Source: a virus | Strand: one strand, 5' to 3' | DNA length: 24,019 nucleotides | IMG/VR virus record: IMGVR_UViG_3300015371_000175 | Coordinates: 1-24,019 of that record | Shown here: piece by piece, positions 1 to 24,019 of the stretch | Layout: every line of letters starts with the position of its first letter | Numbering within the stretch: position 1 is the first letter of the stretch | The notes under the pieces: model-generated | Seen by the model: the letters and a program-made list of their open reading frames with translations, nothing else | Database searches by the model: none | What the model was told of the DNA's origin: nothing | Translations under genes and position numbers: made by a program

Positions 1-863
1 CCGGAGCGCGTCTGGTAGCCAAGCCGCATCGCCTCAGTGAGCGTCGTGGACGAGTTGTACACCCTCGCGCGGACCCTGTACCGGCCGACCCACTCGCCAA
101 TCGCCGTCACCACAGCCACAGCTGAGGTTGACAGCGCCGCGCTCCGGTAGATGTTGGTGCTCAACGAGCCGGTTCGGGTGGTACTCGTCGCGCCGCCTGC
201 GGCTGTGAGGTCCGGCTGAGTCAGCAGCAGGTCAGTCGGGTTGTCCGGGTCAAAGTATCGCGACTCCATGCCGCACTCGGCCCAAGCCCGGTTAGACGCC
301 GTGTTGTTGTAGACGCGGACCAGGCCCAGCGCCTCCGCCGATCCCTGAAGCTCCGGGATGACCGCCTCGATGTGCCACGGCGCGGTCAAGCCGCTCTGCG
401 AGAAGATGTTGCGCTGCGCCAGCCGACCGTAGGGGTGGGCGGTGAACTCAAACGCGCACTCGCCGATCCGCGCGCCAACGCGAGTCGGGTCCTGCGGCCA
501 CTCGGTGATGCGAATGGTCTCCAGGTCATAGATGATCCGGTCGCCGCCGTCCGGAATGAAGTGCAGCTGGCCGCCATATCGGCCGACCTCATCGAGACGC
601 CTCGACCACGCTTGGACGTTGTTGTTGAAGTCGATGGAGTTGTCACCGGTGATGATGACCTTGCCGCCGCCGGTCGGATTGCCCTCGTGGCGGTTGACGC
701 GCTTCGCCCCTTGCGTGTCAATTGACTCCGCGAAGCTCTCATCGAACACCGGGGTGGGAAGCTCCAGCCCCGTGTCCTTGTCCGCGAAGATTGACGTGGT
801 GTCGGTGATGTCCAGGTAGTCGGCCTGGTCCAAGTTGCTCACCAGTAGTGCCTGTACAGCCAT
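1..863 (-). CDS. Minor tail protein, N-terminal part (runs off the left edge)
   Basis: The frame opens with an ATG at 863 that overlaps the tape measure stop (ATGA) and stays open for 287 codons to the window edge, so the C-terminus is missing. An AAGGGG ribosome site lies 7 nt upstream. The protein starts MAVQALLVSNL and is mostly beta-strand-like, with no signal peptide or membrane segment. The first gene after the tape measure in siphoviruses usually encodes the distal tail (Dit) or another baseplate or minor tail protein, and position is the main evidence here. The segment at residues 55-165 (for example GDNSIDFNNNVQAW and a later FEFTAHPYGR) looks like a Dit-style tail ring domain followed by a possible jelly-roll-like region. 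I do not recognise a named family. The role as tail protein is fairly safe; the exact baseplate part is not. Confidence 0.7.
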   Translation of the reverse strand, partial: MAVQALLVSNLDQADYLDITDTTSIFADKDTGLELPTPVFDESFAESIDTQGAKRVNRHEGNPTGGGKVIITGDNSIDFNNNVQAWSRRLDEVGRYGGQLHFIPDGGDRIIYDLETIRITEWPQDPTRVGARIGECAFEFTAHPYGRLAQRNIFSQSGLTAPWHIEAVIPELQGSAEALGLVRVYNNTASNRAWAECGMESRYFDPDNPTDLLLTQPDLTAAGGATSTTRTGSLSTNIYRSAALSTSAVAVVTAIGEWVGRYRVRARVYNSSTTLTEAMRLGYQTRS

Positions 864-3800: not shown

Positions 3801-6568
3801 ACATCGCCGACGCCGTGGCCCGGAACGATCTCGCCGCCCGCCGCCTTGTGTTGGCCCTTCATCGTCACCGCGTGGAACTTGATCGGCGAGACGCCGCCGC
3901 CCAACCCCTTCGCGATCTGATTGAAGTTCTTGGACACGGTGCCCATACCGTCGCCGACCGCGCCGGAGAACGAGCCAATGTTCTGGCTCGACACCCGCTG
4001 GAACTTGTCGATGGAAGTCTGGAGGTTGTGGGCGTCGCGTCCGGTGTCACGCATGTCGTCGCCGGACTTCTTGCTCATGCCGTGAGTCGTGTGAGTGAAG
4101 TCGGTGATGGAGTGGGACGCTCGCGGAATCGTCCGGTGGCTCATCGTGTCAAACGGATTGATGAGGTTCTTCTTGAAGACGTTGCCGAGCGGGTCAGTGT
4201 TCCGCTTCTGCTCCTTGAGGCTCTGATTCCAGCGGTTGGTCTCCTGGATGACCGGGCCAACCTTCTGGTAGTAGACCTGGAAGTCCTTGGTGAGGTTGTG
4301 CTGGCTGACGCCGAGGTTCTGGACGGCCGTCTTGCCGTCCTTCAGCGACTTCGCGAACTTCGGCCCGACTTCCTGCGCCGCCTTCAGCAACAGCCCGCTC
4401 TGCTTCGCCGCCGCCTTGCTCTGGGCTTGCTGCGCTTCCTTGAGCTTGTTGTTGATGTCACTGAGCTTCTTATCCGACGCGCCGCTCTGCTCCGCCGCGA
4501 TGAAGTGCTTCTTGAGGTGCCTGACCTGATCCTTCAAACCTTCGTTGACCTGCTTGATGTGCTGGTACTCAAACGCGATCTGATGGGTGGCGAACTTCCG
4601 CTGCTGACCGGCGAGCTTCTCCGCGTTCTCCTCGCGCTTCAGCGCCTTGCGGTGCGCCTCGACCGCGTCATGCAGCTGCTTCTCCGCGCGGATCGCGGGC
4701 ATCGACTCGCGCCGATGGCGCTCCAACACGTTCTGGTAATGCTGCTCGGCTCGCTTGACGTTGTCCGCCGTCCGCTTGACCTGCTCATGAGACTTGGACA
4801 CCGCGTTCGCCGACTTGTGATATGAGTCAACGGCATCCTTCGCACTCCGGAATCCCTTGGTGATGTCGCGCGACGCCTTGTGAACCTTTTGGAGCGCGCC
4901 GATGTGCTTGGCCGCTTGCGAGTCGAACAGACCGCCGAGCCAACCGCCGAGGAACGAGCCAATGCCCGAGCCGACGAGCGCGCCCGGTAGCCCTCCGACA
5001 AGTCCGCCGACGAGTCCCCCAGCGAGCGCGCCGCCGGTCTTGAACAACGTCTGCTTGGTGTCACCCTTGATGCCGCTCGACACGATGTTCGCGATTCCGG
5101 CGACCGCGATTGCGGCGGGCAGAGCCTTCGCCAACGCTCCGCTGAGGCTGAATGCCCAAGCGCGACCGGCAGCCGCCAGCCCCACCGTTCCCGACTCCGC
5201 GACGATGGCGACGCCGAGCGTCTTGGCGATGGTCGCCGCGAGCGTCCGTCCGATGGCCGCGCCGAGAACGCCCCACTGACCAGCGATGGTAATGCCAGCC
5301 GCGATGATCGCGAGCTTGCCCGCGAGGTCCGCGTGGATGAAGCCGGTGATGATGCCCTTGACGATGGCAAAGCCGCCCGCCACTGCCGCCGCTGCGAGCT
5401 TCGGCCCCATGGAGGACACCACGTGCGCCGCCATATCGGCGAGCGTGCTCAGCTTGTCGGAGAAGCTACCAGGTCCGGTGAGAACGTCCGTCACGTCCTT
5501 GACCGCCGACGCAAACGCCGGGGTGATGACGTCGCCGAGCTTGATGAGCACCACCTGTAGCTCGTTGGCGGCCTCTTGGAGCTTGACGCCCGGCTTGTCC
5601 TGGACCTGCTTCCACTTCTTGCCGAAGTCCTCAGTGGCCTGACCGATGCCGTTGAACTTCTTGTGGAGGTCATCGACGTTCTGGATCAGGGTCAGGATCG
5701 CCGCTGAGCTTCGCCCTCCGCCGAACGCCTCCGAGATCAGCGGCCCAGCCTTCGCTCCGGATAGCCCGGCTTGGTCGAGCTTGTCCGACAACAGCTGGAT
5801 GGCAGCGGGCAGTCCCTTCGTCCGCATGACCTCGCCGAGCTTGTCTGCAGACAGACCTATCTGGCCCAACGCCTTCGCCGCCTCGTCGGATGGCGCGGCC
5901 ATGAGGCTGAAGGTCATGCGCAAACGAGTCGCCGACTGCTGCGCAGACATACCCTTTGAAGTCATGACGTCGAGCGCCGAGCCGACATCCTGCAGCGACA
6001 GGCCAAACGCCTTCGCCGCCGGGAGCACGCCGGTGGATAGCGCGCCGGTCATCTCGTCCATCCGCATGTTACCTTGACCGACGATGGCGTTGAGCATGCC
6101 GATGGTCTCGCCCATCTTCTCGGTGCCCTTGATGCCGGACTGCATCGCGCCAACTACCGCGTTGGTCGTGTCCTCCAAGTCAGCCTGGCCGACCTCCGCA
6201 AGCTTCGATGACGCGGACAAGACCTTCATCGCCTTCGCGCCGCGATAGCCAACCGACTCGATATGGAACAGCGCGTCAGCCAGTTCCTTCGGAGCGAAGG
6301 TCCGGTGCGTGGATAGCTCCAGCACCTGATCGCGTAGATCCTTGATCTCACCAGCCGACGCTCCGGCCGAAGTCGAGATCAGCCGCATCGACTTGTTGAA
6401 GTCCATGCTGGCATTCACAGCCGCCACGCCGATACCGGCGACGGCGAGCGCACCAACCTTGCCCACCGTCGCCAGTCTCGACTTCAGCGTTGACGACTTC
6501 GCCTGCTTCATCAGCGGAGCGAAGTTGCCGATGATGTCTACATAGCCTGTTCCGACTTTGGTGGCCAC
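863..6568 (-). CDS. Tape measure protein with M15 peptidase-like and lytic transglycosylase domains
   Basis: This 1901-aa protein sets tail length and occupies the tail lumen; at about 0.15 nm per residue it would give a tail near 285 nm. Residues 55-300 match the TP901-type tape measure core (STSAGASAGEIKDL, FGGGRSSAAILTLI). Residues 380-545 are hydrophobic and glycine-rich, and 565-800 are charged coiled coil. Residues 1035-1044 fit the SxHxxGxAxD zinc motif of VanY/M15 peptidases, completed by DHLHV at 1101-1105. Residues 1168-1270 resemble a soluble transglycosylase, with probable catalytic Glu1196 in SEAGWDP and the AAGLAQALP motif. A Gly linker (1299-1309) leads to a Lys/Asp/His-rich region, and the end carries the common GIAGEAGPEVI tail motif. 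The start is GTG, two bases after the chaperone stop. The two domains probably help cell-wall penetration during DNA entry. Confidence 0.96.
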   Translation of the reverse strand: MATKVGTGYVDIIGNFAPLMKQAKSSTLKSRLATVGKVGALAVAGIGVAAVNASMDFNKSMRLISTSAGASAGEIKDLRDQVLELSTHRTFAPKELADALFHIESVGYRGAKAMKVLSASSKLAEVGQADLEDTTNAVVGAMQSGIKGTEKMGETIGMLNAIVGQGNMRMDEMTGALSTGVLPAAKAFGLSLQDVGSALDVMTSKGMSAQQSATRLRMTFSLMAAPSDEAAKALGQIGLSADKLGEVMRTKGLPAAIQLLSDKLDQAGLSGAKAGPLISEAFGGGRSSAAILTLIQNVDDLHKKFNGIGQATEDFGKKWKQVQDKPGVKLQEAANELQVVLIKLGDVITPAFASAVKDVTDVLTGPGSFSDKLSTLADMAAHVVSSMGPKLAAAAVAGGFAIVKGIITGFIHADLAGKLAIIAAGITIAGQWGVLGAAIGRTLAATIAKTLGVAIVAESGTVGLAAAGRAWAFSLSGALAKALPAAIAVAGIANIVSSGIKGDTKQTLFKTGGALAGGLVGGLVGGLPGALVGSGIGSFLGGWLGGLFDSQAAKHIGALQKVHKASRDITKGFRSAKDAVDSYHKSANAVSKSHEQVKRTADNVKRAEQHYQNVLERHRRESMPAIRAEKQLHDAVEAHRKALKREENAEKLAGQQRKFATHQIAFEYQHIKQVNEGLKDQVRHLKKHFIAAEQSGASDKKLSDINNKLKEAQQAQSKAAAKQSGLLLKAAQEVGPKFAKSLKDGKTAVQNLGVSQHNLTKDFQVYYQKVGPVIQETNRWNQSLKEQKRNTDPLGNVFKKNLINPFDTMSHRTIPRASHSITDFTHTTHGMSKKSGDDMRDTGRDAHNLQTSIDKFQRVSSQNIGSFSGAVGDGMGTVSKNFNQIAKGLGGGVSPIKFHAVTMKGQHKAAGGEIVPGHGVGDVFHTAVPVGSFILNKKASAIWPMLAGGGPLDKKTGRRHPLTPVSLEPGERLFDPDAVSQIGLRTLRAVNNQFPRFATGGTAGMKPAAAALATYFVKTFGGGISSGLRAGDTGSFHSLGEAFDWVPGNANAGTDYANKIGPSILEGIHNPAGWGNMVSWDSGNRVSPSFWGSATWADHIDHLHVATNQGIGAKASMGVQSIPDMVFKGPDGGLHDIGQGVLDKAVNEVNDFLAKHSGGLGLDVPTGPIQQMAKQMLDQMGWANQWPQFNALEMSEAGWDPTAQNSSSGAAGLAQALPPSKYPPGAWPYHGLESAKLQLQWMMQYIKQRYGSPAAAWSFHQANNWYREGGLVRQLLAGGGDVGGSAGGFGGTDIPPGYPGGGGGGSGGGFHGKIRTMHEYIQKLLGTKTGQFNKQDDITKAFQKTIKDLDLPKGLLDKMHERAISVATDRENESRLESLDEILSFQYDQLAPALDAAMEATDIAAQLGLAKTGQEQLDMLKGTLYNLLPNDARRALDMLDPHGYLIPSMIGGKNEKGWIWQEIMDLVDLSNSAVTLGGSQKDVMAKLKAWETLGDHKVSDFVKEVRDTLRKKEHMHHQIDRALDHDKHHIKRDTDWLGDHPLTLMNHVTPDDVYKRFKDLGFKVSGNEITPGDEKDMKWHKIREPYTHTFINKVFNKYKDAAKSPNEGDWWRRLKELADSEIDKEHQDLLNKLFKAKPTSDEYKHHKKNDVIKLREHEAQFRRYLAYMTGDKSFRVGRPEPWDDFSTFADATSRSIMGMLRDKKEAIGGATIPTGIGLDFGGESFLDAVNEIRGFGAPPGVWKKLPPLGTYGGSLLDAYTSWATWLPDQPFDTSQTFDGGAADGGDDGGLADLLREQIAILQRQLIVSRAEQPVLASYAGLFAKGGAIPAGMFGIAGEAGPEVIEGPANVYPMGGGGAVELHLNGNIYTEYDLDKAIQVKVNGQLMRTRSHGRRSFALRGS

Positions 6569-8934: not shown

Positions 8935-9287
8935 GATCCGTTGCCCTCCCATAGCTCAACGCGGAGCGCCACGCACTCGACGTGCCATACGTCCGGCGAG
9001 CCTTGCCTGGCGTCCCAGCCGTTGCCGACTAGCTCAAACTTGCCGATGCCCTCGATGACCATCTCATCGCCCGTCCGAATGTCGGTGCCGGTCGGCAGGT
9101 AGATCTTCCAGGTGTCCAGCGCCGCCTCGCCCGCCTGCTCCGGCTCGTCGGATTGGACCTGCTGCGCCTCGCATGGCGACTGAAACTCGTGAGGTGTCCG
9201 GACCTCGTTGCCAAGCTCGTCCACTTCATCCGACTGGATCATCTGCTTGATCATTGCGGTCTTATTGAAGAGCGCGGTCAACGACAT
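8931..9287 (-). CDS. Head-tail connector (stopper-like) protein
   Basis: This 118-aa protein has the order expected of SPP1 gp16 / HK97-type stoppers: an N-terminal strand region (NKTAMIKQMIQSDEVDELG), a long hydrophilic loop, then WKIYLPTGTDIRTGDEMVIE and KFELVGNGWDARQGSPDVWH. The 'lP.gtdi..gD.v.i.G..f.V.G.p....p..HveV' pattern is typical of the beta-barrel connector that closes the portal channel after packaging. The ATG at 9287 overlaps the preceding glycosyltransferase by 10 nt, and a GGAGG site lies 13 nt upstream. The gene is separated from the adaptor (14482-14943) by eight non-structural genes, whereas in most siphoviruses the two are adjacent. Confidence 0.83.
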   Translation of the reverse strand: MSLTALFNKTAMIKQMIQSDEVDELGNEVRTPHEFQSPCEAQQVQSDEPEQAGEAALDTWKIYLPTGTDIRTGDEMVIEGIGKFELVGNGWDARQGSPDVWHVECVALRVELWEGNGS

Positions 9288-9955
9288 GCGGCTAGAAGTT
9301 CCTCCATGCGGTCAGGGTAGCCATTCGCCTTAGAGTACCGCTTGTACAGGGCCCAACTCTCGTGGCTTCCCATGCGCCGGTCGTGTCGCTCCGGCGACGG
9401 ATGCCACATGTGGTAAAGGTCAGCTGTGCCGCGCCACGGCTCGCCTTCCATCGTCGCGAGCGCCAGTCCCCATGACTGGTCCTCCTGGCCCCAGCCGGTG
9501 AACCGTTCATCGAGCGGCACCGCCATCAGCGTCTCACGTTGCGCGATGACAAAGCCTCCGCCCTTGACGCCGTCATACGGCCGACTGGACGGCGGCACTG
9601 GCATCGGCTTGTTGTTGTACAACGCCCAAGTCGCCTTCTTCGTCAACCTGAATACCTCCAGGTGCGGGATCGCCCATGACGCCACTCCGCACGTCACAGC
9701 CCTCACGGCGGCCGGTAGCCCATCCGTCCAGACATCGGCGTCCGCGACGATGACGGGGTCATCCGACGCGCGCATCTTCTCGACTCCACGGTTGACTAGT
9801 TCCCCTTTACAGAACGGCCGGAACGGATCGCCGCGCTCGATCACCACGTGGTAGTCTGGCAGCTTGATCCGGTACTGCTTCTTGACCCAAGCCAACGCTT
9901 CGATGCGGGCATGCTCATCATCGGCCGCCGCGAACGGGATGACTACGCCGGGCAT
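9278..9955 (-). CDS. GT-A glycosyltransferase with polypeptide-GalNAc-transferase-like C-terminal region
   Basis: The 225-aa protein has a DAD metal and nucleotide-sugar binding triad at residues 72-74 (VADADVW) and GGGFVIAQRETLMAVPLDER at 132-151. It continues into FTGWGQEDQSWGLAL and finally HMWHPSPER at 182-190. The 'GG..a..re.f..vggfDE.f.GwG.ED...g.Rl' arrangement with a trailing H-x-x-H-P is characteristic of the C-terminal region of GT27-type and related GT2 enzymes (glyco_transf_7C), which use UDP-sugars. It lacks a membrane anchor, so it is probably cytosolic. It overlaps the upstream GT by 13 nt and the stopper gene by 10 nt. Substrate and acceptor are unknown; a virion protein or a host surface glycan are both possible. 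Confidence 0.85.
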   Translation of the reverse strand: MPGVVIPFAAADDEHARIEALAWVKKQYRIKLPDYHVVIERGDPFRPFCKGELVNRGVEKMRASDDPVIVADADVWTDGLPAAVRAVTCGVASWAIPHLEVFRLTKKATWALYNNKPMPVPPSSRPYDGVKGGGFVIAQRETLMAVPLDERFTGWGQEDQSWGLALATMEGEPWRGTADLYHMWHPSPERHDRRMGSHESWALYKRYSKANGYPDRMEELLAACR

Positions 9956-10707
9956 GGGTCCGCGATCAGTTCGGGGTCATCCGGCTCGCGCCAGATGTTG
10001 GACCAGAAGTATTCAGCCAGCGCCTCCTCGCCTCCGCTCTCAAGCATCCGACCAAAGCCCCGGAGATGCGGGCTGACTTCCTCCGGAAGGTCGGCCGCCG
10101 CCTTGCGCCCGTTGTAGCCGTTCCGGACCTTGCTGATGAACTGATTCGGCGAGCGGTATGGGAAGTGACGGACCTCAAGCTTGAATGGTCGCGTCGCCGC
10201 GTACTGGCCGTGATAGGTGACGCTGTGGTAGCCCTCGCTGAACTGCATGAACGGCATCACTCGGCACGCGACCTTGAGGAGCGGGTTGACGGTGCGTCGG
10301 CGATAGCGCATCCGGTCAAACGGATGGTCGCCGTGCATGCCCTCTGTTGGTACATGCTCGAGAAGCTCCGCCGTGAACACCCAAGTCTTCCGCGCGTTGC
10401 GCCTGATGACCGTCGCAATCGGTTCACGACTCGTGCTGTACCAGATCTCATCGGCGTCAAACGGCACGACATACTTGCCGCCGGTATCTATCGCCAGGGC
10501 TGTGACCTTCCGGGCCTGGTAGTGACGCGGGTCAGGATCGTCGCGTACCTCAATGGGCAACGACGCGAGTATCTCACGCGTGCCATCCGTCGAGCCGTTA
10601 TCCACAGCCACCACGCGGTCCACCTGTCCGAGCATATGGGTGATCGTCCGCTCGATGACATCAGCCTCGTCCTTGACGAGGCACACGCCGACTACTTCAC
10701 AGGACAC
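9943..10707 (-). CDS. Family 2 glycosyltransferase
   Basis: The 254-aa protein begins SCEVVGVCLVKDEADVIERT, the typical 'vvGv.lvkNEad.ie.ti.....'start of GT2 enzymes, then RVVAVDNGSTDGTREIL at residues 31-47. It carries the FDADEIW metal-binding motif, with Asp84 and Asp86. The C-terminal half contains HFPYRSPNQFISKVRNGYNG, a stretch often found in the same subgroup of bacterial and phage GT2 proteins. The start is a GTG at 10707, overlapping the methyltransferase stop by 16 nt. I preferred it because the GT2 fold begins right there and upstream in-frame sequence is low-complexity shadow. The protein has no membrane segment. It should transfer a sugar from a nucleotide donor; the acceptor is not evident. 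Confidence 0.88.
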   Translation of the reverse strand: MSCEVVGVCLVKDEADVIERTITHMLGQVDRVVAVDNGSTDGTREILASLPIEVRDDPDPRHYQARKVTALAIDTGGKYVVPFDADEIWYSTSREPIATVIRRNARKTWVFTAELLEHVPTEGMHGDHPFDRMRYRRRTVNPLLKVACRVMPFMQFSEGYHSVTYHGQYAATRPFKLEVRHFPYRSPNQFISKVRNGYNGRKAAADLPEEVSPHLRGFGRMLESGGEEALAEYFWSNIWREPDDPELIADPCPA

Positions 10708-11252
10708 AGCACCATCCCGTTCTTCCGGTCGTCCTCGTTGGGGTTGTTGCGCCGGTTGAAGTCGGTGAGTTTGCGGTCCACCTTCCAACCGGCGGCACGG
10801 AACAGCCCTTGCCAATAGCCTCGCGGCCGGAGGTTGATGTGCTGGTGTCCGACTTGCCCAGGAGGAGCGGCCGTGAAGTAGATGGCCCGCTCCGCCGACC
10901 GGGTGATGTTCCTGACGAGCCGACCGGCCCAACACGACTCGATGTGCTCCGCGACCTCGCGACACCAGACCAGATCGGCCTTCAGCGTCACAATGTCGGT
11001 GAGATCGCGGACCATGTACCGCTCGCTCTCGAACAGCACGTGATCGCGTAGCTCCTCCTTGCCATCGACGCCGTACACATCCAGCCCGGCTTGGAGCATC
11101 CCCCAAACGTCTACGCCCAGCCCGCAGCCGAAGTCAAACGCCGTCCGCAGGTGGTACTTGTTGATCATCAAGTCGAGCGTGTCGCGCCAGTAGTCCTCCG
11201 GCAGCATTGTCCGCTCGTACAGCGTTGGGTCGGTGTACGCCGTGTCACTCAC
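10692..11252 (-). CDS. Class I SAM-dependent methyltransferase
   Basis: This 186-aa protein shows the Rossmann-fold motifs in order. Motif I is FDFGCGLGVDVW (residues 39-50), the acidic end of strand 2 is YGVDGKEE (60-67), and CREVAEHIE (97-105) follows strand 4. The closing region FTAAPPGQVGHQHIN and a W-rich tail resemble small phage and bacterial methyltransferases found next to glycosyltransferases, often annotated Methyltransf_23/11. A catalytic NPPY/DPPY motif is absent, so DNA base methylation is unlikely; sugar or other small-molecule methylation is more plausible. The start is a GTG at 11252, overlapping the zinc-ribbon stop by 8 nt (GTGAGTGA), with no strong ribosome site, which suggests coupling. 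Confidence 0.86.
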   Translation of the reverse strand: MSDTAYTDPTLYERTMLPEDYWRDTLDLMINKYHLRTAFDFGCGLGVDVWGMLQAGLDVYGVDGKEELRDHVLFESERYMVRDLTDIVTLKADLVWCREVAEHIESCWAGRLVRNITRSAERAIYFTAAPPGQVGHQHINLRPRGYWQGLFRAAGWKVDRKLTDFNRRNNPNEDDRKNGMVLCPVK

Positions 11253-11367
11253 TCGGCGGCAACCCTTCGCAGCATCCGTCGATGACCTGCTTGCACTCGT
11301 CGCATTGAAGGTGCGAGCCGACCCACACGACCGCGTTGGCCCCGCACCACGGACAGACGGCCTCCAT
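11245..11367 (-). CDS. Small zinc-ribbon protein (40 aa)
   Basis: This short gene reads MEAVCPWCGANAVVWVGSHL, then QCDECKQV and DGCCEG, ending PPSE. The CPWC and CDEC pairs, 14 residues apart, form a classic four-cysteine zinc ribbon, and two further cysteines follow. The ATG at 11367 comes immediately after the TAG of the metallophosphoesterase gene, and a perfect AGGAGG ribosome site lies 8 nt upstream, so expression is likely. The stop overlaps the methyltransferase GTG. Zinc ribbons of this size often mediate nucleic-acid or protein contacts. Its partner could be the adjacent phosphoesterase or methyltransferase, but the sequence does not say. Confidence 0.8.
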   Translation of the reverse strand: MEAVCPWCGANAVVWVGSHLQCDECKQVIDGCCEGLPPSE

Positions 11368-12618
11368 CTACCAGCCCTCCTGATCGCGGTGACGGATGAA
11401 CAGCGGCAACTGCGCGGTGATGCCGTGCTCCGGCGTGACGACGAAGAGCAACTGCTGCGGTGGCTCCGGCTCAAAGCCCTTCGCCCTCGCGTACTCGTCA
11501 TAGCCCTTGCCTGCGCCATTGACAATGACGCCCTTCGCCGGTAGCGACATCAGCTGATGCCAATGACCCATGAGCAGCACATCAAACGGATGGCCCTCCG
11601 CCTCCGCTTGCTTCCGGATGCGGTGAGCGCGGAGCGCGACCGGGAGCATGGCTCCCTGAATGCCGCTGCCGCCTCGCGCCTCGTCGCCGTGCTCCGCCCT
11701 GAACTTGACATCGTACACCTGGAAGTCGGCGCTGATGCCGTCGCTGATGGAGAAGGTGACACGCTTGTCGCCCTTGAGTTCCTGAGCGACGAGTCGCGAC
11801 ACCATCGTGTCGGCGTTGTGACGCGACCGGCCCTTGTAGCGCGGCTTCTTGGAGTCGCGCGGATGATTGCCCGGCACGCCCACGTAGTGGACCTTGCCGA
11901 AGTTCTGAGCCAGTAGCTTGACGCCAGCCGCCGTCCACGCCGCCGCCGGAGGAACCGCCTCATAGTTGGACCACTCGTTGGTCTCCCGTAGCTCCTCGTG
12001 GATGTCGCCGCTGATGGTGTCGCCTAGATTGACGAGCACAATGCCTTCATACTCGACTCCGCGAAGGTAGTTGCGGGCCACGAGGATCGACCGCTCAAAG
12101 AACCGGCCGATGCGCTGCTCCGCGATCTTCGGGTTGTAGGCGTTGTAGTCCGCCATCTCCTCAGGCTGGACAACCTCGCCGACGTGCCAATCCGAGTACA
12201 GCCCAACGACTATCGCCTTGCGCTGCTCGCCCTTCGGCTTTCTCACAGCCCAGCGCGGCGGAGGCACATTCTTGATCTTGCCAGACAACTCGATCTGCTT
12301 CTCCAGTCGGCTGACCTCCTGTTGCGACTCCGACAGCTGGCGCCGAGCTTCGCGCGCCTCCGCCGCCGATGCATTGGCGCGGTTCTTCGCCTCGTTGAGA
12401 CGCTTGACTAGTTGCCGCGCTTCTTTCGTCGGCTCAGCAGCAGCAGTCTCAGCAAAGCCCTTCGGCAATTCGCCTCCGGGATGATCCGCTTCCCAACGCA
12501 TCAGCAGCGTGTTGCGCTTCACCTTGTGCGCCCGTGCCGCCTCCGCCCAACTGCCGTGTTCGCCCTTCTCAAGCGCCTCGATGGCAGCCGTGACTTTGGG
12601 GTCTCTCTTAGCGGGCAT
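11368..12618 (-). CDS. Calcineurin-like metallophosphoesterase with N-terminal HTH and coiled coil
   Basis: The 416-aa protein has three parts. Residues 1-45 (AAIEALEKGEHGSWAEAARA, then KVKRNTLLMRW) look like a Psq/Hin-type helix-turn-helix. Residues 62-112 are an Ala/Glu/Arg coiled coil. Residues 134-400 form a metallophosphoesterase: SDWHVG (Asp143, His145), NLGDTISGD (Asp200), GNHPR (Asn251, His252), RAEHGD (His310) and GHWHQ (His352, His354). All expected dinuclear-metal ligands are therefore present. The family contains nucleases such as SbcD/Mre11 and phosphatases; LGDTISGDIHEEL is a form common in phage homologues. The ATG at 12618 overlaps the deacetylase stop by 11 nt. The HTH suggests nucleic-acid targeting, so a nuclease or nucleotide-end processing role is possible, but activity cannot be read from sequence alone. 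Confidence 0.88.
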   Translation of the reverse strand: MPAKRDPKVTAAIEALEKGEHGSWAEAARAHKVKRNTLLMRWEADHPGGELPKGFAETAAAEPTKEARQLVKRLNEAKNRANASAAEAREARRQLSESQQEVSRLEKQIELSGKIKNVPPPRWAVRKPKGEQRKAIVVGLYSDWHVGEVVQPEEMADYNAYNPKIAEQRIGRFFERSILVARNYLRGVEYEGIVLVNLGDTISGDIHEELRETNEWSNYEAVPPAAAWTAAGVKLLAQNFGKVHYVGVPGNHPRDSKKPRYKGRSRHNADTMVSRLVAQELKGDKRVTFSISDGISADFQVYDVKFRAEHGDEARGGSGIQGAMLPVALRAHRIRKQAEAEGHPFDVLLMGHWHQLMSLPAKGVIVNGAGKGYDEYARAKGFEPEPPQQLLFVVTPEHGITAQLPLFIRHRDQEGW

Positions 12619-13228
12619 TCTGATCCATCCGGTAGTAGACCTCAGTCATCAAGATCTCCTTCATGTGAGTAGTTGGCCGCACCTGCGACTGATAGCACTC
12701 GACGGCCTCGCGCTTTTGCGACTCCGGCATCCGCCGTCCAACTGGTCGCGGTTCCACGCCCTCAAGCCGTCGATGAAGTTCCTTCGGGTACATCCGCGCA
12801 TACGGCGCATCGGCGTACAGCCATGCCTCAAGGTTACATTGATGGGCTACTCGTCGGAAGGCGTCGCTGACTGCGATGTGATCCGGATGGCTGATGCCCA
12901 GCGGGCCAGCAACCGGCTCGTCGTCATCGACACCTTGTAGCGCCCACTCAACTGCCTCGATGATCTCTGAGTCCTCGCGACCGTATGCGAGGTCCTTCAC
13001 ATCCATATGCACAGCAGTGAATCCTAATGCCTCCGCAGCGCAAATGTCCTCGTGGCGGCGAGCTTCCATGGCATCGGCTGCGAAGTCAAAGCCGGAGTCG
13101 ATGTCAAACATCGACGGCGCGAGGTCGCCCGGAGGCACACCGGCGCAGATCGTGATCACGGTCGCGCCTTCGCACAGCCCTGCTGCGGACCAGACCGCGT
13201 CATCCAGGTGCGGTGACAAGATGATCAT
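12608..13228 (-). CDS. PIG-L/LmbE family N-deacetylase
   Basis: The 206-aa protein starts MIILSPHLDDAVWS, the first zinc motif of the PIG-L/LmbE family (usually PHPDDE; here His7, Asp9, Asp10). GPLGISHPDHIAV at residues 109-121 follows, supplying the third zinc ligand (His117). The segment RRHEDICAAEALGF (58-71) is the usual 'R..E...A...LG' helix. Family members remove acetyl groups from N-acetylglucosamine-type sugars in GPI, mycothiol, teicoplanin or lincomycin pathways. Here, beside four glycosyltransferases, it probably deacetylates a sugar on a glycan or sugar precursor. Glu is replaced by Ala in the first motif (PHLDDAV), which also occurs in other functional members. The ATG overlaps the upstream TGA (ATGA). 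Confidence 0.9.
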   Translation of the reverse strand: MIILSPHLDDAVWSAAGLCEGATVITICAGVPPGDLAPSMFDIDSGFDFAADAMEARRHEDICAAEALGFTAVHMDVKDLAYGREDSEIIEAVEWALQGVDDDEPVAGPLGISHPDHIAVSDAFRRVAHQCNLEAWLYADAPYARMYPKELHRRLEGVEPRPVGRRMPESQKREAVECYQSQVRPTTHMKEILMTEVYYRMDQNAR

Positions 13229-13842
13229 CCGAACACCGCCGCCTCGATCTCGCGATGGACGCGCATGATGGTGTCGTGCGACTTCCGGTTGCGTGAGTTC
13301 GGCCGGAGCCACGCCTTGTAGACGGCTTTGTGGATCGGCTCGATGGTCCCGCCCGCTTGCCAGGCTCGCGCCCAGAGCGCCCAGTCCTCAGACCAATCCC
13401 ATTCCTCCCAACCGCCGACGCTTTGAGCCAAGCCCGTCCGGATCGCGGTGCCGATGACGGCCCAGTTGCCGAAGCGGAGGCAATCGGCGGAGCACTCGTG
13501 CTTGTGGCCCCAGACGCGCGGCATGAACGGCCGCCCTCTCGAGATCGCGCCGGTTCCGCGCACCTGCATGATCCGGGGCACCCGCATGTCGGCTGTGCCC
13601 TCAGCCATCGCCTCGACGTAGCCCGGCGTCAACTGGTCATCAGCGTCCAAGTGGATCACCCACGGTGTCTCGACTTGCGCCAAACCGGCGTTCCTCGCCT
13701 CCGCCAACGTCGTGCGATGCTCGTGGATGACAGGGACGCCTTGAGCACGCGCGGAAGGTAGCGCCCTCTTGGTGGCCAGGCGTCGCCAGAGTTCCTTCCC
13801 ATACGTGCCGATGACTACCGTTGCGTCAAGCTTTTCGCCCAT
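13225..13842 (-). CDS. Family 2 glycosyltransferase (DADD type)
   Basis: This 205-aa GT-A protein has an N-terminal nucleotide-binding strand (DATVVIGTYG, residues 6-15), TLAEARNAGLAQ at 45-56 and the metal-binding WVIHLDADDQLTPGY at 61-75. The acceptor side holds GGWEEWDWSEDWALWARAWQ (143-162), where the acidic ED is the usual catalytic-base position of GT2 enzymes. The ATG at 13842 overlaps the previous glycosyltransferase by 28 nt. I chose it because homology-like sequence begins here, while the in-frame extension upstream is Arg/Ala-rich shadow. It has no membrane helices. It belongs to a run of four glycosyltransferases with a deacetylase, so a multi-sugar glycan is the likely product; donor and acceptor are unknown. 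Confidence 0.88.
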   Translation of the reverse strand: MGEKLDATVVIGTYGKELWRRLATKRALPSARAQGVPVIHEHRTTLAEARNAGLAQVETPWVIHLDADDQLTPGYVEAMAEGTADMRVPRIMQVRGTGAISRGRPFMPRVWGHKHECSADCLRFGNWAVIGTAIRTGLAQSVGGWEEWDWSEDWALWARAWQAGGTIEPIHKAVYKAWLRPNSRNRKSHDTIMRVHREIEAAVFG

Positions 13843-14504
13843 AGCCTGTGCCGTTGTCGGAACAGCCGCTTGTCTCGCAGCCCGTTGCTCTGTCCGAGTC
13901 TGTAAACCTCGTCCCATTCGCGAGTGCCCCAAACCGGGTGCGGATGTTCAATGACGATGTCGTCCGCGAAGTGCCACTCTCCACGCTTCCATGCGAGGTT
14001 GCAAAGCTCGTTGTCGGCGTACTGGTGATGGTAGCCCTCGTGGAACACATGCCCCGGCTCGCGCCATGCAGCGCCGGGGTGCTCGATGTAGTCGCGCCGG
14101 ACCAGCTGCGCCGTCGCGTGATCGCGGTTCCGCGTCCGAGGAGTCTTGTCGTTGGTACCGATGACAGCCTTGTCGAGCTTCGTCGCCTCGACTGTCGCCT
14201 CATACCAGCCCGGCTTGAACTTGACATCGTCGCCGCAGCACAGCACCCAGTCGCCCTCCGTGACGGCGACAGCAGTGTTGATCTTCTTTGGGAAGGTGCC
14301 GCTCCGGACGATGCGGTTGACATCTAGCCCGGCGACAAGCGTCTGGATGACCTCGTTGGTCTTCGCGTCGTCCTCGTCGGTGACGAAGGTGATGCGGTAG
14401 CTCCGGCGCGGCGTGTAACGCCGGATGTCATCGGTGACGACTAGAACATTGCCCGGCCGCTTGAGGGTCGGGATGATGATGTCAACAGTCGGACTCGGTG
14501 CCAT
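13815..14504 (-). CDS. GT-A fold glycosyltransferase (GDD type)
   Basis: The 229-aa protein opens with MAPSPTVDIIIPTLKRPGNV, a standard GT2 N-terminus, and has ITFVTDEDDAKTNE at residues 38-51. The metal-binding WVLCCGDDVKFKPGW at 86-100 includes Asp92 and Asp93. The second half has a striking aromatic and His-rich stretch (GHVFHEGYHHQYADNELCNL, 151-170) and EHPHPVWG, the acceptor-binding area in this type of phage and bacterial enzyme. The ATG at 14504 lies 23 nt inside the adaptor gene, so the first accessory gene is physically interlocked with the head module. That suggests long-term residence rather than a recent insertion. No membrane segment is present; the acceptor is unknown. Confidence 0.86.
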   Translation of the reverse strand: MAPSPTVDIIIPTLKRPGNVLVVTDDIRRYTPRRSYRITFVTDEDDAKTNEVIQTLVAGLDVNRIVRSGTFPKKINTAVAVTEGDWVLCCGDDVKFKPGWYEATVEATKLDKAVIGTNDKTPRTRNRDHATAQLVRRDYIEHPGAAWREPGHVFHEGYHHQYADNELCNLAWKRGEWHFADDIVIEHPHPVWGTREWDEVYRLGQSNGLRDKRLFRQRHRLWAKSLTQR

Positions 14505-14943
14505 CCGGATTGATGTACAGGTACTGATCCGGCAAAGTGACCTCTGGAATGTCATCCAGTATGGTCCGCACCGGCTGCCATGCCGCGCCATGCGCGACGA
14601 TGCGCCTGATCAGCCGTTGCTCGGTGTCGGACAGTAGCAGGTTGGTCCCGGCGTCCTCGCCGGGGTCAGGGAACCGCTTCGTGCGGCTGTAGTCGCCCAG
14701 CTGCTCTTGATCGCTGAGCAAGCCGTCCGGATTCTGCGCTGCGCGCACAACTGCTGTCACAGCCACAGAGCGGATCGCGGCGGGGACAGGGTCAAGCTCG
14801 TCGGCCCAAGCATCATCACGGCCCACCGACTCGGCGATCATGCTGCTGACCTCGTCCAGCAGGGCTGTGTACTGCGTTTCCTCCTCCGCCGTCAACTCTC
14901 GGCCGAGTCGGACACTGACGTCTCCAGTTTCTGCTAGCGCCAC
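14482..14943 (-). CDS. Head-tail adaptor protein
   Basis: This 153-aa protein directly follows the major capsid gene, the normal position of the SPP1 gp15 / HK97 gp6-like adaptor that binds the portal. It is helical: LTAEEETQYTALLDEVSSMI, then VPAAIRSVAVTAVVRAAQNP and a C-terminal LSDTEQRLIRRI helix. The central 'p..ir.v....a.R...NP.G...e..G.ys' pattern is characteristic of actinophage adaptors. I chose the GTG at 14943, with a GGAGG ribosome site 5 nt upstream, over a TTG four codons earlier that would overlap that site. The last 23 nt overlap the first glycosyltransferase gene. The gene is preceded by a strong stem-loop. Confidence 0.85.
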   Translation of the reverse strand: MALAETGDVSVRLGRELTAEEETQYTALLDEVSSMIAESVGRDDAWADELDPVPAAIRSVAVTAVVRAAQNPDGLLSDQEQLGDYSRTKRFPDPGEDAGTNLLLSDTEQRLIRRIVAHGAAWQPVRTILDDIPEVTLPDQYLYINPDGTESDC

Positions 14944-20233: not shown

Positions 20234-21862
20234 TTACTGCCACGCAGCGCGGCGATAGACGGGCGTCTCAAACTCCTCCAGCGCGTCGGCCCGCGCTCGA
20301 TACGCGAGCACCGCCGCCGGTACAGAGTCGATCTTGAGCGGCGAGCCGCGCCGCTCCTTGCGAACGATGTATGCCTCCTCAGACTTGTCCTCCAACCGCA
20401 CCCGGACCTTCTGGACACGAGCGTTCTCAAAGTGCCACAGCGCGAGCGGTCGGCCCGAGCGCGTCTGCGGGTCGGTCATCAACGGCATCGGGTCGATCTC
20501 GACGTCATGCTTGCGGATGGCCGTCCGGAGCGCGCCGGTGGCAATGGCCATCCGCGACTCCTTGTTGGTCCACCACTCGACTACCGGCGGCGACCCATGA
20601 TCAGCCGCCCAGTCGCCAACTTCCTTCTGCCACCACGCCGGGTCGCAGTTGAACCGGACCACCTCATACTCGTCAAACATCCACTCGACGGCGCGCGACA
20701 CGTCCTCGACCGGCACCTCCCAGCCGCTCTCGTGGCCCTCCTGTGGAGCCCAGATGCCGACCGGCACTAGGAGTCCCTCCTTTGTGCATAGCCAGAGCGC
20801 CGAGTGGTCCTCAGATAGCGACCCATCAAAGCCCGCCGCGACCTTAGAGCCACGCGGAACAATTGCCTCGTGGACAACGATCTCGTTGATCTCATCCGGC
20901 GACAGCCAGTGGCTCGCCGGAGCGCGCGGACGGTTCAGGAAATACCTGTACGCCTCCGACAGCGGGTCCTCCGAGTCTCGGATCACATTCACGATCCGGT
21001 CAAAGTCAATCCACGACGCCGCCGGACCATAGCCGGTCTTCATCGCCTTCTTCAAGCTCGCGTTGGAGCCGAACATCTTCGGCTCGTCGCCCTGGCGATG
21101 ATCATACAGCACGCCAAACTTCTGCACCGCCTCGTCGGTTGGCAGATGGCTGTAGCGGTCGGCCGCTTGCTCGGCGATGGAGTTCTCGCCCGGCTCCCAG
21201 GCTGTCGTCGTGTCGAGCATCCACGGTTCCGCCGCCTTCCGCTTGCCGGTGTTGCGCGCCACCGTCCGGTACATCTGCCGATGCTCACGCTTGATGTACA
21301 GGTGGGTCTCGTCGGCGACCGCGAACGACTCCTTCCCGCCGTCCTTCGCCGCGCTGGAGGCTGTGCTGGGTCTGATCTCGCCTCCGCCCGACTCCTTGAT
21401 GAAGGTCCGAGTCAGACCAGCATCGATCTTGTACTCATTCACCACCGCGCCTTCGGTCAGCATGTAGTAGACGTTGTCATACGTGTTGCCGCTCTGATCC
21501 TCCTCGGTGGCCAAACAGCGGATGAACGGGTATGTGACCGGAACGCCGACCGGATCGCCGTTGGCGTCAAAGCCATCGAAGCGGACTGGCCCCAGAGCCT
21601 CAGCGCAGACAAACTGCGCCGCGAACTCAGACTTGGCCCGGCCCTTCGGCCGCGACAGCACAGCCCGGTGGATCGGCCTCCGCCCGGCTAGCTCGTGATC
21701 GCGCGGCCAGATGCGGTAGACCCAACAGAGGAACGTCGCAAACTCGTCGTCAACCTCCGTCTTGTCACCCTGTACGTCGCCGGGTCCGTGCGGCAGGAAC
21801 TCCTCAATCCAGTCGATGACTTGCCAGCCGAGTGTCGGGAAGGTGATGGGCGGAAGGCTCAT
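20234..21862 (-). CDS. terL: Terminase large subunit
   Basis: This 542-aa protein is the ATP-driven packaging motor and nuclease. Residues 68-78 (VLSRPKGRAKS) form a variant Walker A, and SFAVADETHLY (179-189) is the Walker B with catalytic Glu185. The RNase-H-like nuclease domain supplies GFDGSLSEDHS (Asp346), RFNCDPAWWQ (Asp407) and LKIDSVPAAVLA (Asp512), a likely set of metal-binding acidic residues. The length is normal for the Terminase_1 family. The ATG at 21862 overlaps the TGA of the glycoside hydrolase gene (ATGA). I chose it over an upstream in-frame start because the longer form would overlap the hydrolase by 100 bases and adds no family-like residues. Confidence 0.96.
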   Translation of the reverse strand: MSLPPITFPTLGWQVIDWIEEFLPHGPGDVQGDKTEVDDEFATFLCWVYRIWPRDHELAGRRPIHRAVLSRPKGRAKSEFAAQFVCAEALGPVRFDGFDANGDPVGVPVTYPFIRCLATEEDQSGNTYDNVYYMLTEGAVVNEYKIDAGLTRTFIKESGGGEIRPSTASSAAKDGGKESFAVADETHLYIKREHRQMYRTVARNTGKRKAAEPWMLDTTTAWEPGENSIAEQAADRYSHLPTDEAVQKFGVLYDHRQGDEPKMFGSNASLKKAMKTGYGPAASWIDFDRIVNVIRDSEDPLSEAYRYFLNRPRAPASHWLSPDEINEIVVHEAIVPRGSKVAAGFDGSLSEDHSALWLCTKEGLLVPVGIWAPQEGHESGWEVPVEDVSRAVEWMFDEYEVVRFNCDPAWWQKEVGDWAADHGSPPVVEWWTNKESRMAIATGALRTAIRKHDVEIDPMPLMTDPQTRSGRPLALWHFENARVQKVRVRLEDKSEEAYIVRKERRGSPLKIDSVPAAVLAYRARADALEEFETPVYRRAAWQ

Positions 21863-22788
21863 ACACCAACGAGTCGCCCGGACGTGTACAGCTTTGGCGT
21901 GTAGTCCGCGTACAACTGGAAGTTGGTCCACGCCGGTCGCGGAGTCACGAGGTCGGGCTGCCATAGCCCGCCGTCATAGTCGAGCGTCCCCGGAGTCGCG
22001 CCGGACGTGTCGTGATACCCGTACCACATCACGCGCGAGATCAGCCAGGTGTTCTTCCGGTAGAGCATCTGTTGAAAGAAGTCCGCCAACATCCCAGCCT
22101 TGGTGGCTTCGCCGCCGACATCGCTCGCCCGATAGCCGCACTCATCAATGATGATGTAGCGGTCGGACAACCCCTTGTTGATGAGCATCTGACGCATCTC
22201 CAAGACTCCGGCGGCGGTGGCATCAGCTGATGTGGAGCGATATGCGTGGTATCCGACGCCGAAGAACTTGCCCATGCCGAGCCTAGCCTTGATCGCGTTG
22301 ATCGCTGTCGCGTGGTACGCAATCGCCGACGAGCTAGCCTGCGAACCTCCGATGTAGATGCGCGCGTCCGGCTGGATGGACTTGATGACCTTCGCCGCCG
22401 CGTTGACAGCTATGCCAAAGTCCGTCGCGGTCCCCGGGAACTCGTGCCCGCTCCAAGTCGGCTCGTTGCCGAGGATGTAGTCCACTGGCTTCGTCGGGAT
22501 CGTCGGATTGGCTGGCCAGAAGGAGCCGGTCGGCTTGTACCGATTGACGAGCGCTGCGATGTTCACAGCCATGCCCGCGTCGGTGAGTGTCCCGTTGCCG
22601 ATGGAGATGAGCGGCCGCATGCCGTACTTGCAGATCAGCCGTAGCCGCCGGTCGATGACGTCAAAGTTGGTAGTGGTCCAACCGGCGGTGATCCGAACTT
22701 GGCCGCACCCGGTAGCGCCGAGCGTCGCGACCTGCGGCTCAGTCATCTCTGGTAGATGTGGAGTGCAGCCAAACAGCGAGTTGCCCAC
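21859..22788 (-). CDS. TIM-barrel (clan GH-A) glycoside hydrolase; possible endolysin
   Basis: The 309-aa protein has the layout of clan GH-A enzymes such as GH5 and GH39. ILGNEPTW (residues 105-112) gives the acid/base Glu109 after strand 4, and IIIDECGYR (212-220) gives the nucleophile Glu216 after strand 7. VRITAGW, FFGVGYHAYRS and VMWYGYHDT fit other barrel strands. There is no signal peptide or cell-wall-binding domain. The GTG start at 22788 has a perfect AAGGAGG 8 nt upstream, inside the overlapping 53-aa membrane protein gene. It follows a run of small membrane proteins. Possible substrates are wall polysaccharide, capsule or glycan-bearing virion parts; peptidoglycan is not implied by the family. 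Confidence 0.85.
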   Translation of the reverse strand: MGNSLFGCTPHLPEMTEPQVATLGATGCGQVRITAGWTTTNFDVIDRRLRLICKYGMRPLISIGNGTLTDAGMAVNIAALVNRYKPTGSFWPANPTIPTKPVDYILGNEPTWSGHEFPGTATDFGIAVNAAAKVIKSIQPDARIYIGGSQASSSAIAYHATAINAIKARLGMGKFFGVGYHAYRSTSADATAAGVLEMRQMLINKGLSDRYIIIDECGYRASDVGGEATKAGMLADFFQQMLYRKNTWLISRVMWYGYHDTSGATPGTLDYDGGLWQPDLVTPRPAWTNFQLYADYTPKLYTSGRLVGV

Positions 22789-22904
22789 GGCCTCTGCCTC
22801 CTTCCGGTTAGCCAGTTGTTGACGCCTTCGGCGAGCTTGTACAACCCGATGACGGTGAACACCGCCGTCCACATCGCCAAGTGCAGTTGCGGCGACCCAC
22901 CCAT
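22743..22904 (-). CDS. Small membrane protein (53 aa, one TM)
   Basis: The protein runs MGGSPQLHLAMWTAVFTVIG and continues LYKLAEGVNNWLTGRRQRPW to the end YQR. Residues 7-24 are a single transmembrane helix followed by a basic tail (TGRRQR) that is likely cytoplasmic. The ATG at 22904 overlaps the TGA of the preceding 101-aa gene (ATGA). The last 46 bases overlap the glycoside hydrolase start. I see no family. Its size, one helix and position next to a hydrolase make a holin, antiholin or holin partner possible but unproven. The longer in-frame extension upstream (to 23234) is not supported because it is arginine/histidine-rich and lies over another convincing gene. Confidence 0.7.
   Translation of the reverse strand: MGGSPQLHLAMWTAVFTVIGLYKLAEGVNNWLTGRRQRPWATRCLAALHIYQR
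22797..22803 (-). promoter_or_regulatory. Ribosome binding site fixing the GTG start of the glycoside hydrolase
   Basis: AAGGAGG on the minus strand lies 8 nt before the GTG at 22788, inside the coding region of the preceding 53-aa membrane protein. It decides the start against longer in-frame readings up to 22872, whose extra residues are arginine-rich and not family-like. Confidence 0.7.
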
Positions 22905-23209
22905 CAGCAATCTACGCTGCTGAAGCTCCGATACGTCCGCTGCTGATTCTCCAACTGAAGCTTGATCTGCGCCGCGCTGAAGCCGAAGGCACCCTCCGGA
23001 TGCTTCCGGAGGAACTGCTGCCCTTGGTCGATGCGCGCCGCGAGGTCCACTTTGAACGCGCAGAGCGCCGCGTGATTCGTGTCGGCTTGGTCCTTGGCGT
23101 TGAGGCTCGTGACCAACGTCAGAGCGAACATGGCGGTGACGAGGATCAGAACGTATGGGAACGCGAAGGTCGTCACCCGGCTGAACTTGTTGTGCGCTGA
23201 AGCCATCAT
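22904..23209 (-). CDS. Single-pass membrane protein (101 aa)
   Basis: The protein has a short basic N-terminus (MMASAHNKFSRVTT), a strong transmembrane helix at residues 16-36 (AFPYVLILVTAMFALTLVTS), then a soluble segment that continues to the end. By the positive-inside rule the segment lies outside. That part is helical (CAFKVDLAARIDQGQQFLRK) and ends with FSSVDC, so there are two cysteines, at positions 50 and 101. Such N-anchored proteins with an extracellular coiled region occur in many actinophage lysis regions and are usually annotated only as membrane proteins; a spanin-like role would be unusual outside Gram-negative hosts. The ATG overlaps the TGA of the previous gene (ATGA). Confidence 0.8.
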   Translation of the reverse strand: MMASAHNKFSRVTTFAFPYVLILVTAMFALTLVTSLNAKDQADTNHAALCAFKVDLAARIDQGQQFLRKHPEGAFGFSAAQIKLQLENQQRTYRSFSSVDC

Positions 23210-23340
23210 GCTCCGACCACCCCCGCTGTGTCAAGTATCTGCAGGATCAGCAAAGCCGTCAACGCCGCGCAGATGTAGATGGTGCTGAACTTGTGGTGCT
23301 CCATCCAGTCGCGCATCGGCGTGCGACTTCGCTCCGTCAT
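23206..23340 (-). CDS. Small membrane protein (44 aa, one TM)
   Basis: This short frame reads MTERSRTPMRDWMEHHKFST followed by the hydrophobic helix IYICAALTALLILQIL and a short C-terminal DTAGVVGA. The N-terminal 18 residues are polar and basic, so it is probably N-in. The ATG at 23340 overlaps the previous gene's TGA (ATGA), and a GGAGG ribosome site lies 6 nt upstream. Its TGA overlaps the next ATG in the same manner. It is too short for family assignment. In this run of membrane proteins it could be one part of a two-component holin. Confidence 0.72.
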   Translation of the reverse strand: MTERSRTPMRDWMEHHKFSTIYICAALTALLILQILDTAGVVGA

Positions 23341-23513
23341 TTGGGCCCTCCATTCCTTCGCTCGTCGGCCCGGATAAAGAAGGGTAGTCCCATCATCGCT
23401 CCGAACAGCGCGAGCAGCACCGGCCGGTCGGTTGAGGTAGCGACCGTCTCATAGATGACTCCGGCCAACCCTCCGAAGAACATGATGACGTCGCGGAGCC
23501 ACTTCCACTCCAT
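23337..23513 (-). CDS. Small holin-like membrane protein (58 aa, two TM)
   Basis: The frame starts at the ATG immediately after the TAG of the small terminase gene and reads MEWKWLRDVIMFFGGLAGVI. A polar turn (YETVATSTDR) and a second hydrophobic segment PVLLALFGAMMGLPFFI follow, ending RADERRNGGPK. Two hairpin-forming transmembrane helices and a short charged C-terminus are the layout of class II holins, and the RPVLLALF...GLPFFIRADE stretch resembles small proteins near actinophage lysis genes. The C-terminus overlaps the next gene (ATGA). A holin role is reasonable but rests on topology and neighbours only. Confidence 0.75.
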   Translation of the reverse strand: MEWKWLRDVIMFFGGLAGVIYETVATSTDRPVLLALFGAMMGLPFFIRADERRNGGPK

Positions 23514-23978
23514 CTACTGCTCTCCGCCCTCGATCACGCTTAGACGCGCCCTTCTGGCTGCAGATGACCTGCTCTGTCGCTTCTTGTCCTCGGCCTTTTC
23601 CTGCGCCTCCGCGAAGATCGGCAACCTGTAGCGGAGGTCGCGCTTGCCTTTGGGCGTGTAGCCGAGCTTGTCCAGCCGGGCTGTGAGGTGCTTCTCATAC
23701 TTGTACGGCTCGTCGCACCAGTAAGCGTGGATGCGGGCGGTCTCCAGCACGTAGTCGATGTCGGCGACGGACAGCTGGCTCGATGACGGGTCGGCGCGCC
23801 ACGCCTTGTACGCCCGTTTCGTCGGAGCGGGCCATGCCTGGCCATCCGGCATCTTCGCCGGTAGCGGCGGCAGCGGCGACGTGAAGGTGCCCTCCGCCGG
23901 GAGGTCGATCCACTCGCCCTTCCGGGGTGCGTTCTTCCGCCTCCGCTCGTCTGCTGGCTTTGGTGCTGGTCCGGCCAT
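23514..23978 (-). CDS. Terminase small subunit
   Basis: This 154-aa protein opens MAGPAPKPADERRRKNAPRK, the characteristic start of many actinophage small terminases. A proline-rich linker (PLPPLPAKMPDGQAWPAPTK) leads to a helical core: RAYKAWRADPSSSQLSVADI, then DYVLETARIHAYW. The C-terminal half is basic and Lys/Arg-rich, ending ARLSVIEGGEQ. The small subunit recognises viral DNA and hands it to TerL. I chose the ATG at 23978, with a GGAG 12 nt upstream, over a TTG six codons earlier. The gene is separated from terL by five other genes. About 40 bases upstream (23979-24019) hold no other gene. Confidence 0.85.
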   Translation of the reverse strand: MAGPAPKPADERRRKNAPRKGEWIDLPAEGTFTSPLPPLPAKMPDGQAWPAPTKRAYKAWRADPSSSQLSVADIDYVLETARIHAYWCDEPYKYEKHLTARLDKLGYTPKGKRDLRYRLPIFAEAQEKAEDKKRQSRSSAARRARLSVIEGGEQ

Positions 23979-24019
23979 CAACGCATCAAGCTCCAATCCC
24001 GTACACGCAGTTTGCAGCC

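What the first reader, a model, noticed from the sequence alone, without database searches (positions are those of the whole stretch)
21859..23513. Putative lysis cassette between the two terminase subunits, with a GH-A hydrolase
Directly after the small terminase come four tiny membrane proteins (58, 44, 101 and 53 aa; two with clear holin-like shape), all joined by ATGA overlaps. A TIM-barrel glycosidase follows, overlapping terL. No other classical endolysin (amidase, lysozyme, peptidase) is visible in the window. A clan GH-A enzyme without a wall-binding domain would be an unusual endolysin and could instead attack arabinogalactan, capsule or another surface polymer.
Basis: partly seen in the sequence, partly recalled or inferred. 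Interest (0 to 1): 0.7.

Follow-up and report, generated by a model that had tools for sequence, protein, structure and literature searches.

The report
PslG-like sugar-cutting enzyme between terminase genes
A soil phage, probably of a little-studied actinobacterial class (Thermoleophilia), carries between its two DNA-packaging genes a few tiny membrane-protein genes and an enzyme that very probably cuts the host's own surface or slime sugars rather than its cell wall, a less usual place and enzyme family for a phage but an understandable one.

Summary
The genes are real, but the lysis-cassette reading holds only in part. The hydrolase is a complete clan GH-A TIM barrel (model pLDDT 88.7, pTM 0.88) with acid/base E109 on strand 4 and nucleophile E216 on strand 7. 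Its nearest solved relatives are GH39 enzymes, above all the exopolysaccharide endoglycosidase PslG (profile E 5.6e-37). It probably starts at GTG 22788, not at an ATGA overlap. Relatives occur in 55 of 299 Thermoleophilia genomes but 1 of 296 of the streptomycete class; those inspected lie in polysaccharide gene clusters. Another viral relative is joined to a tail-type FN3 domain and has its own endolysin and holin. So this is most likely a surface-glycan depolymerase, not the endolysin. "No endolysin in the window" means little: the window is a 24-kb fragment ending in tail genes, and the syntenic 62-kb sister carries wall-enzyme genes beyond that point. Three of the four small ORFs have a clear membrane span; the 58-aa one has relatives near M15 endolysins; the 53-aa one is doubtful. 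The terS-terL junction is closed in 88 of 90 relatives; the sister has a different insert there, related to its own tail protein. Function is inferred, not assayed.

The parts
23514..23996 (-). terminase small subunit (flank)
   Evidence: PF25673 Terminase_7 8.7e-11; phrog_226 3.5e-20; 154-aa homologue in the sister phage L008
23337..23513 (-). m58: 58-aa small membrane protein, conserved core GGLAGV..ET....RPxLLxLFGAMMGLPxF
   Evidence: coding-like codon score, hydropathy max 1.74; relatives L020-L023 at 52-60% identity, two of them a few small genes before M15 endolysins
23206..23340 (-). m44: 44-aa protein, one membrane span
   Evidence: ATGA overlap with m58; hydropathy max 2.14; coding-like codon score; no database match
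22904..23209 (-). m101: 101-aa protein, N-terminal membrane span, C-terminal part with Cys50 and a terminal Cys
   Evidence: ATGA overlap with m44; hydropathy max 2.30; strong coding score; no homologue found; resemblance to TM+Cys proteins of L020/L021 is in layout only (hhalign 0.7%)
22743..22904 (-). m53: doubtful 53-aa ORF
   Evidence: TGATG junction with m101, but weak codon score and no clear membrane span
21859..22788 (-). PslG/GH39-like clan GH-A glycoside hydrolase, 309 aa, no signal peptide visible, no membrane span, no binding domain; catalytic E109 (NEP) and E216 (DECG)
   Evidence: start GTG 22788 from Shine-Dalgarno GGAGG and homology/structure
20234..21862 (-). terminase large subunit (flank), ATGA overlap with the hydrolase gene
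   Evidence: phrog_9 9e-58; 76% identical to TerL of contig IMGVR_UViG_3300045243_000060

Best explanation
The hydrolase is a retaining clan GH-A glycosidase of the GH39/PslG type that cuts the exopolysaccharide or surface glycan of the phage's Thermoleophilia host. It is an accessory (moron-like) gene related to a host family and inserted at the normally closed terS-terL junction, in the late operon so that it is made with the virion proteins. It has no visible export signal, so it either rides on the particle or is set free at lysis to clear slime around the cell. The three small membrane proteins before it are most likely holin-like or other envelope proteins; the peptidoglycan endolysin is expected elsewhere, in the missing part after the tail genes. 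Shown by computation: fold, catalytic residues, nearest family, insertion at the junction, lysis-type genes in the sister. Inferred: substrate, host, route of export, late expression, role of the membrane proteins.
For: Profile of the enzyme and 35 relatives against PDB: PslG 5.6e-37, GH39 xylosidases about 1e-20 to 1e-12; E139/E250 of the PslG chain, spaced 111 like the published E165/E276 (PMC11912335), fall on the profile's two catalytic glutamates. AF2 model pLDDT 88.7, all eight strands; best structural matches GH39, Z 27.7. Relatives in 55/299 Thermoleophilia genomes against 1/296 of the streptomycete class; inspected ones lie among glycosyltransferase-, polymerase- and sugar-transferase-like genes. 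Viral relative L160: GH39-like + tail-type FN3 (phrog_1696, 4.1e-17) in tail genes, with separate endolysin (phrog_317, 7.4e-68) and holin (phrog_526, 8.2e-14). Sister phage: at the same junction an ORF that shares 328 aa (30%, 5e-33) with its own minor tail protein, and after its tail genes L,D-transpeptidase, small membrane protein and transglycosylase. Junction closed in 88 of 90 relatives.
Against: No assay. The enzyme shares no recognised domain with the virion proteins present in this fragment, so virion attachment is not shown. It sits beside membrane genes, as lysis enzymes do. The nearest host relatives are only about 20-32% identical, so substrate cannot be read off. The sister's 204- and 158-aa lysis-region ORFs have no Pfam match above cut-off, and its endolysin is assigned only from domain content.
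Confidence: 0.68

Rival explanations
1. True lysis cassette: the small membrane proteins are holins and the GH-A enzyme is the endolysin, acting on a glycan of the wall.
For: Tight overlaps of the small ORFs, three clear membrane spans, a hydrolase right after them; up to four TM genes per lysis cassette are known in Gordonia phages (PMC9671378); m58 relatives lie near endolysins.
Against: Closest families are EPS- and xylan-type GH39 enzymes, not muramidases; no wall-binding domain; the viral relative L160 carries a separate endolysin and holin besides its GH39-like protein; the sister phage has wall-enzyme genes after the tail.
Confidence: 0.12
2. Split system: the membrane proteins (holins, with or without spanin-like m101) are the lysis membrane module moved to this junction, working with an endolysin elsewhere, and the GH39-like enzyme leaves through them to loosen the outer glycan at release. 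(A sharper form of the best explanation, not exclusive of it.)
For: As for the best explanation, plus the sister's XhlA-like (phrog_1193, 1.5e-4) and weakly Rz-like (phrog_214, 0.011) pair lying far from its lysis region, and distal TM gene groups in Gordonia phages (PMC9671378).
Against: m101 has no homologue and only layout resemblance to the Cys-containing TM proteins; no transcript or lysis data; m53 doubtful.
Confidence: 0.3
3. Superinfection or lysogenic-conversion gene set: membrane proteins and glycosidase change the surface of the infected cell to block other phages.
For: Accessory genes at an otherwise closed junction; a glycosyltransferase/PIG-L cluster elsewhere in the same genome suggests interest in host glycans.
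Against: Position inside the packaging operon and no export signal on the enzyme; whether the phage is temperate is unknown because the genome is incomplete.
Confidence: 0.1

Closest known systems
PslG of Pseudomonas aeruginosa (GH39, PDB 5bx9/9g17; retaining endo-beta-glucosidase of the Psl locus, PMC11912335)
   Same: Fold over the whole length (Z 24.6, 279 residues, rmsd 3.0), two catalytic glutamates, top profile match (5.6e-37)
   Different: 16% identity; phage-borne, no export signal visible; substrate unknown; shorter at the C-terminus
GH39 glycosidases 5jvk (Bacteroides), CmGH1 5z3k, beta-xylosidases 2bs9/1px8
   Same: Best structural scores, Z 26-28 over 276-286 residues
   Different: 14-17% identity; these are longer cellular enzymes
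GH39-like tail-region protein of viral contig IMGVR_UViG_2690315802_000002 (L160, 650 aa)
   Same: GH39-like barrel with both glutamates, hhalign 99.7%, no signal peptide seen
   Different: Carries an FN3 domain and lies among tail genes upstream of endolysin and holin; does not group with the window enzyme in the tree (weak support)
Phage GH5-type glycosidases (e.g. Pseudomonas phage POR1, Erwinia phage phiEaP8; BFVD)
   Same: GH-A-like barrel in a phage (Foldseek E down to 6e-12)
   Different: Annotated GH5, many are larger proteins; no sequence match to the window enzyme
Multi-TM lysis cassettes of Gordonia phages (PMC9671378)
   Same: Several tiny TM genes together, some away from lysA
   Different: Here between the terminase genes, with a GH39-like enzyme and no LysA in reach

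Membership tests
Clan GH-A glycoside hydrolases | (beta/alpha)8 barrel | tested here: met
   AF2 with 36-row alignment, pLDDT 88.7, pTM 0.88, eight strands alternating with helices; GH-A enzymes lead the structural matches
Clan GH-A glycoside hydrolases | acid/base Glu after Asn at end of strand 4, nucleophile Glu at end of strand 7 | tested here: met
   N108-E109 just after strand 103-106 and E216 at the end of strand 211-217; E216 invariant, N108/E109 in over 90% of A2
GH39 (PslG type) | nearest solved relatives by sequence profile and fold are GH39 | tested here: met
   PslG 5.6e-37; GH39 at the top of the Foldseek and VIA lists; GH51 within about 2.5 Z units
GH39 (PslG type) | match of the window protein itself to Pfam PF01229 over its cut-off | tested here: not met
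   No GH family in Pfam for the window protein; some relatives do pass PF01229 or PF11790. Hence described as GH39-like, not filed as a GH39 member
Phage endolysin | catalytic domain of a known peptidoglycan-hydrolase family | tested here: not met
   No such match in Pfam or PHROGs; fold is GH39-like
Phage endolysin | wall-binding domain (common, not universal) | tested here: not met
   Single 300-residue barrel domain
Phage endolysin | degrades peptidoglycan | not testable with these tools
   needs an assay
Phage virion depolymerase | part of, or fused to, a tail fibre/spike protein | tested here: inconclusive
   Single domain here; the viral relative L160 has a tail-type FN3; the sister's insert shares a domain with its tail protein
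Holin / lysis membrane protein | small protein with one or more membrane spans | tested here: met
   m58, m44, m101 by hydropathy; m53 not
Holin / lysis membrane protein | match to a known holin family | tested here: not met
   No holin match in Pfam or PHROGs; so called holin-like in shape only
Holin / lysis membrane protein | gene next to an endolysin gene | tested here: inconclusive
   Not in the window; m58 relatives in L020/L021 lie 2-3 kb before M15 endolysins, with small ORFs between, most of them membrane proteins

The most novel reading that the evidence does not exclude
A phage of Thermoleophilia uses a host-type exopolysaccharide glycosidase, made in the cytoplasm from the packaging operon and let out through its neighbouring small membrane proteins at lysis, as a dedicated slime-release step beside the normal endolysin, with the terS-terL junction as an exchangeable slot for glycan-active cargo.
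Probability: 0.27. Interest if true: 0.65.

Novelty: new variant of a known kind. Interest (0 to 1): 0.42.

Why it matters
Phage enzymes that strip bacterial slime are a known kind, but a PslG/GH39-type one between the terminase genes is unusual: no sequence relative was found among 50,697 annotated phage records. It points from an uncultivated phage to a bacterial class (Thermoleophilia) for which I know of no isolated phage, and gives a testable enzyme for host surface glycans of unknown structure. It also warns that 'enzyme after holin-like genes' is not enough to call an endolysin.

Tried and rejected
Direct searches of the enzyme as a single sequence in Pfam, PHROGs, PDB, phages, plasmids, viral and genome contigs gave nothing usable; the weak DUF2148 and pyroglutamyl-peptidase hits were discarded as chance. 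AF2 without an alignment gave pLDDT 43.6; its Foldseek list was not relied on. The 552-aa GH-A-looking ORF of L121 did not align to the profile (hhalign 2.6%). m101 against the Rz-like protein of the sister and against the Cys-containing TM proteins of L020/L021: no homology. A tree of the enzyme family put the two viral members apart, with weak support, so no origin is claimed from it. The endolysin reading was rejected as main explanation for the reasons given. No host can be named from the window alone; Thermoleophilia is inferred from the enzyme's relatives and from TerL (58-70% identical pieces in a Solirubrobacteraceae MAG).

Full report
What is there. The window is the whole of a 24,019-base linear IMG/VR record, hence a fragment; all genes considered run on the minus strand. 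Between terS (23514-23996) and terL (20234-21862) lie ORFs of 58, 44, 101 and 53 aa and a hydrolase. The 58-, 44- and 101-aa ORFs have coding-like codon scores and a membrane span each; the 53-aa ORF has neither in full. The hydrolase most likely begins at GTG 22788 after a GGAGG, because relatives align from residue 6 and barrel strand 1 is residues 6-9.

What the hydrolase is. Alone it matches nothing useful. A six-frame search of 299 Thermoleophilia genomes found relatives in 55 (best 3.9e-18, 32% identity); the same search in 296 genomes of the class of a streptomycete found one, at 9e-4. Thirty-five relatives were aligned with it (A2): E216 is invariant and N108/E109 nearly so. The profile's best solved match is PslG, 5.6e-37 over nearly the whole length, followed by GH39 xylosidases. 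In the printed alignment the two glutamates of PslG, 111 residues apart, fall on the conserved ones. AF2 with A2 gave pLDDT 88.7 and pTM 0.88 with eight strands; GH39 structures lead both Foldseek and VIA-align (Z 27.7; PslG 24.6). GH51 enzymes score within about 2.5 Z units, so the family assignment is 'GH39-like', while clan GH-A is firm. No direct Pfam match exists for the window protein itself.

What its relatives do. In four inspected host regions the relatives lie in tandem, near genes whose products look like glycosyltransferases, a multi-span polymerase or ligase, a sugar-transferase and a phosphomannomutase (read by eye from the translations, not scored). PslG, the best-known relative, belongs to an exopolysaccharide locus (PMC11912335). 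A second viral relative (L160) joins the barrel to an FN3 domain of phage-tail type, lies among tail genes, and has its own endolysin and holin.

The place. Of 90 related loci in which both terminase genes were found, 88 have at most 144 bases between them, almost all under 45; only the sister L008 (1,197) and L035 (539, an HNH-like ORF by eye) have an insert. Many of the 90 are close relatives of each other, so they are not independent. The sister (61,888 bases; TerL 76%, tape measure 51% over its first 530 residues) has there a 395-aa ORF of which 328 residues match its own minor tail protein (30%, 5e-33). After its tail genes come an L,D-transpeptidase (1.6e-15), a 59-aa membrane protein and a transglycosylase with a signal-like N-terminus (7.3e-9). 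The window stops before that stretch.

The membrane proteins. The 58-aa protein has relatives in L020-L023; in L020 and L021 it is followed by a run of small membrane proteins and then by M15 and LysM lysis genes. That makes a lysis or envelope role likely for it. For the 101-aa protein no relative was found in phages or viral contigs; the 44- and 53-aa ORFs have no family match and no relative among the fetched loci. Up to four TM genes, also far from lysA, occur in lysis cassettes of Gordonia phages (PMC9671378).

Verdict. Observation partly confirmed; interpretation partly supported. Most likely a GH39-like surface-glycan hydrolase carried as an accessory gene at an insertion slot, with holin-like membrane genes beside it and the endolysin elsewhere. 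Substrate, host and export route are inferred.

Noticed in passing
window 9278-14591: Cluster of family-2 glycosyltransferase (PF00535 3.5e-8), PIG-L deacetylase (PF02585 4.8e-8) and methyltransferase-like genes between head and tail genes; syntenic in the sister (contig 37227-41746).
   Followed up: partly
L017 18518-19179 (sister contig 38518-39179): Pair of small genes, XhlA-like (phrog_1193, 1.5e-4) and weakly Rz-like (phrog_214, 0.011), within the sister's glycosyltransferase cluster, far from its lysis region.
   Followed up: partly
window 863-6568: Tape-measure protein with a transglycosylase domain (aa 1173-1266, phrog_12661 3.8e-17) and, by eye, an M15-like motif HSLGEAFDW..HIDHLH before it.
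   Followed up: partly
L121 6071-8332: TerL of a Solirubrobacteraceae MAG phage seems to carry an intein-like insert (ALDTLLPTPHGWTTMGEVQAGDFLLGADG).
   Followed up: no
L121 12803-15302: Fibre-like ORF followed by a 552-aa ORF with GH-A-like motifs (WNEPPWTN, STECGSG) downstream of the capsid gene; profile comparison negative.
   Followed up: partly
L035 2150-2410: HNH-like 86-aa ORF (by eye) in the terS-terL gap of another relative: a second kind of insert at the same junction.
   Followed up: no
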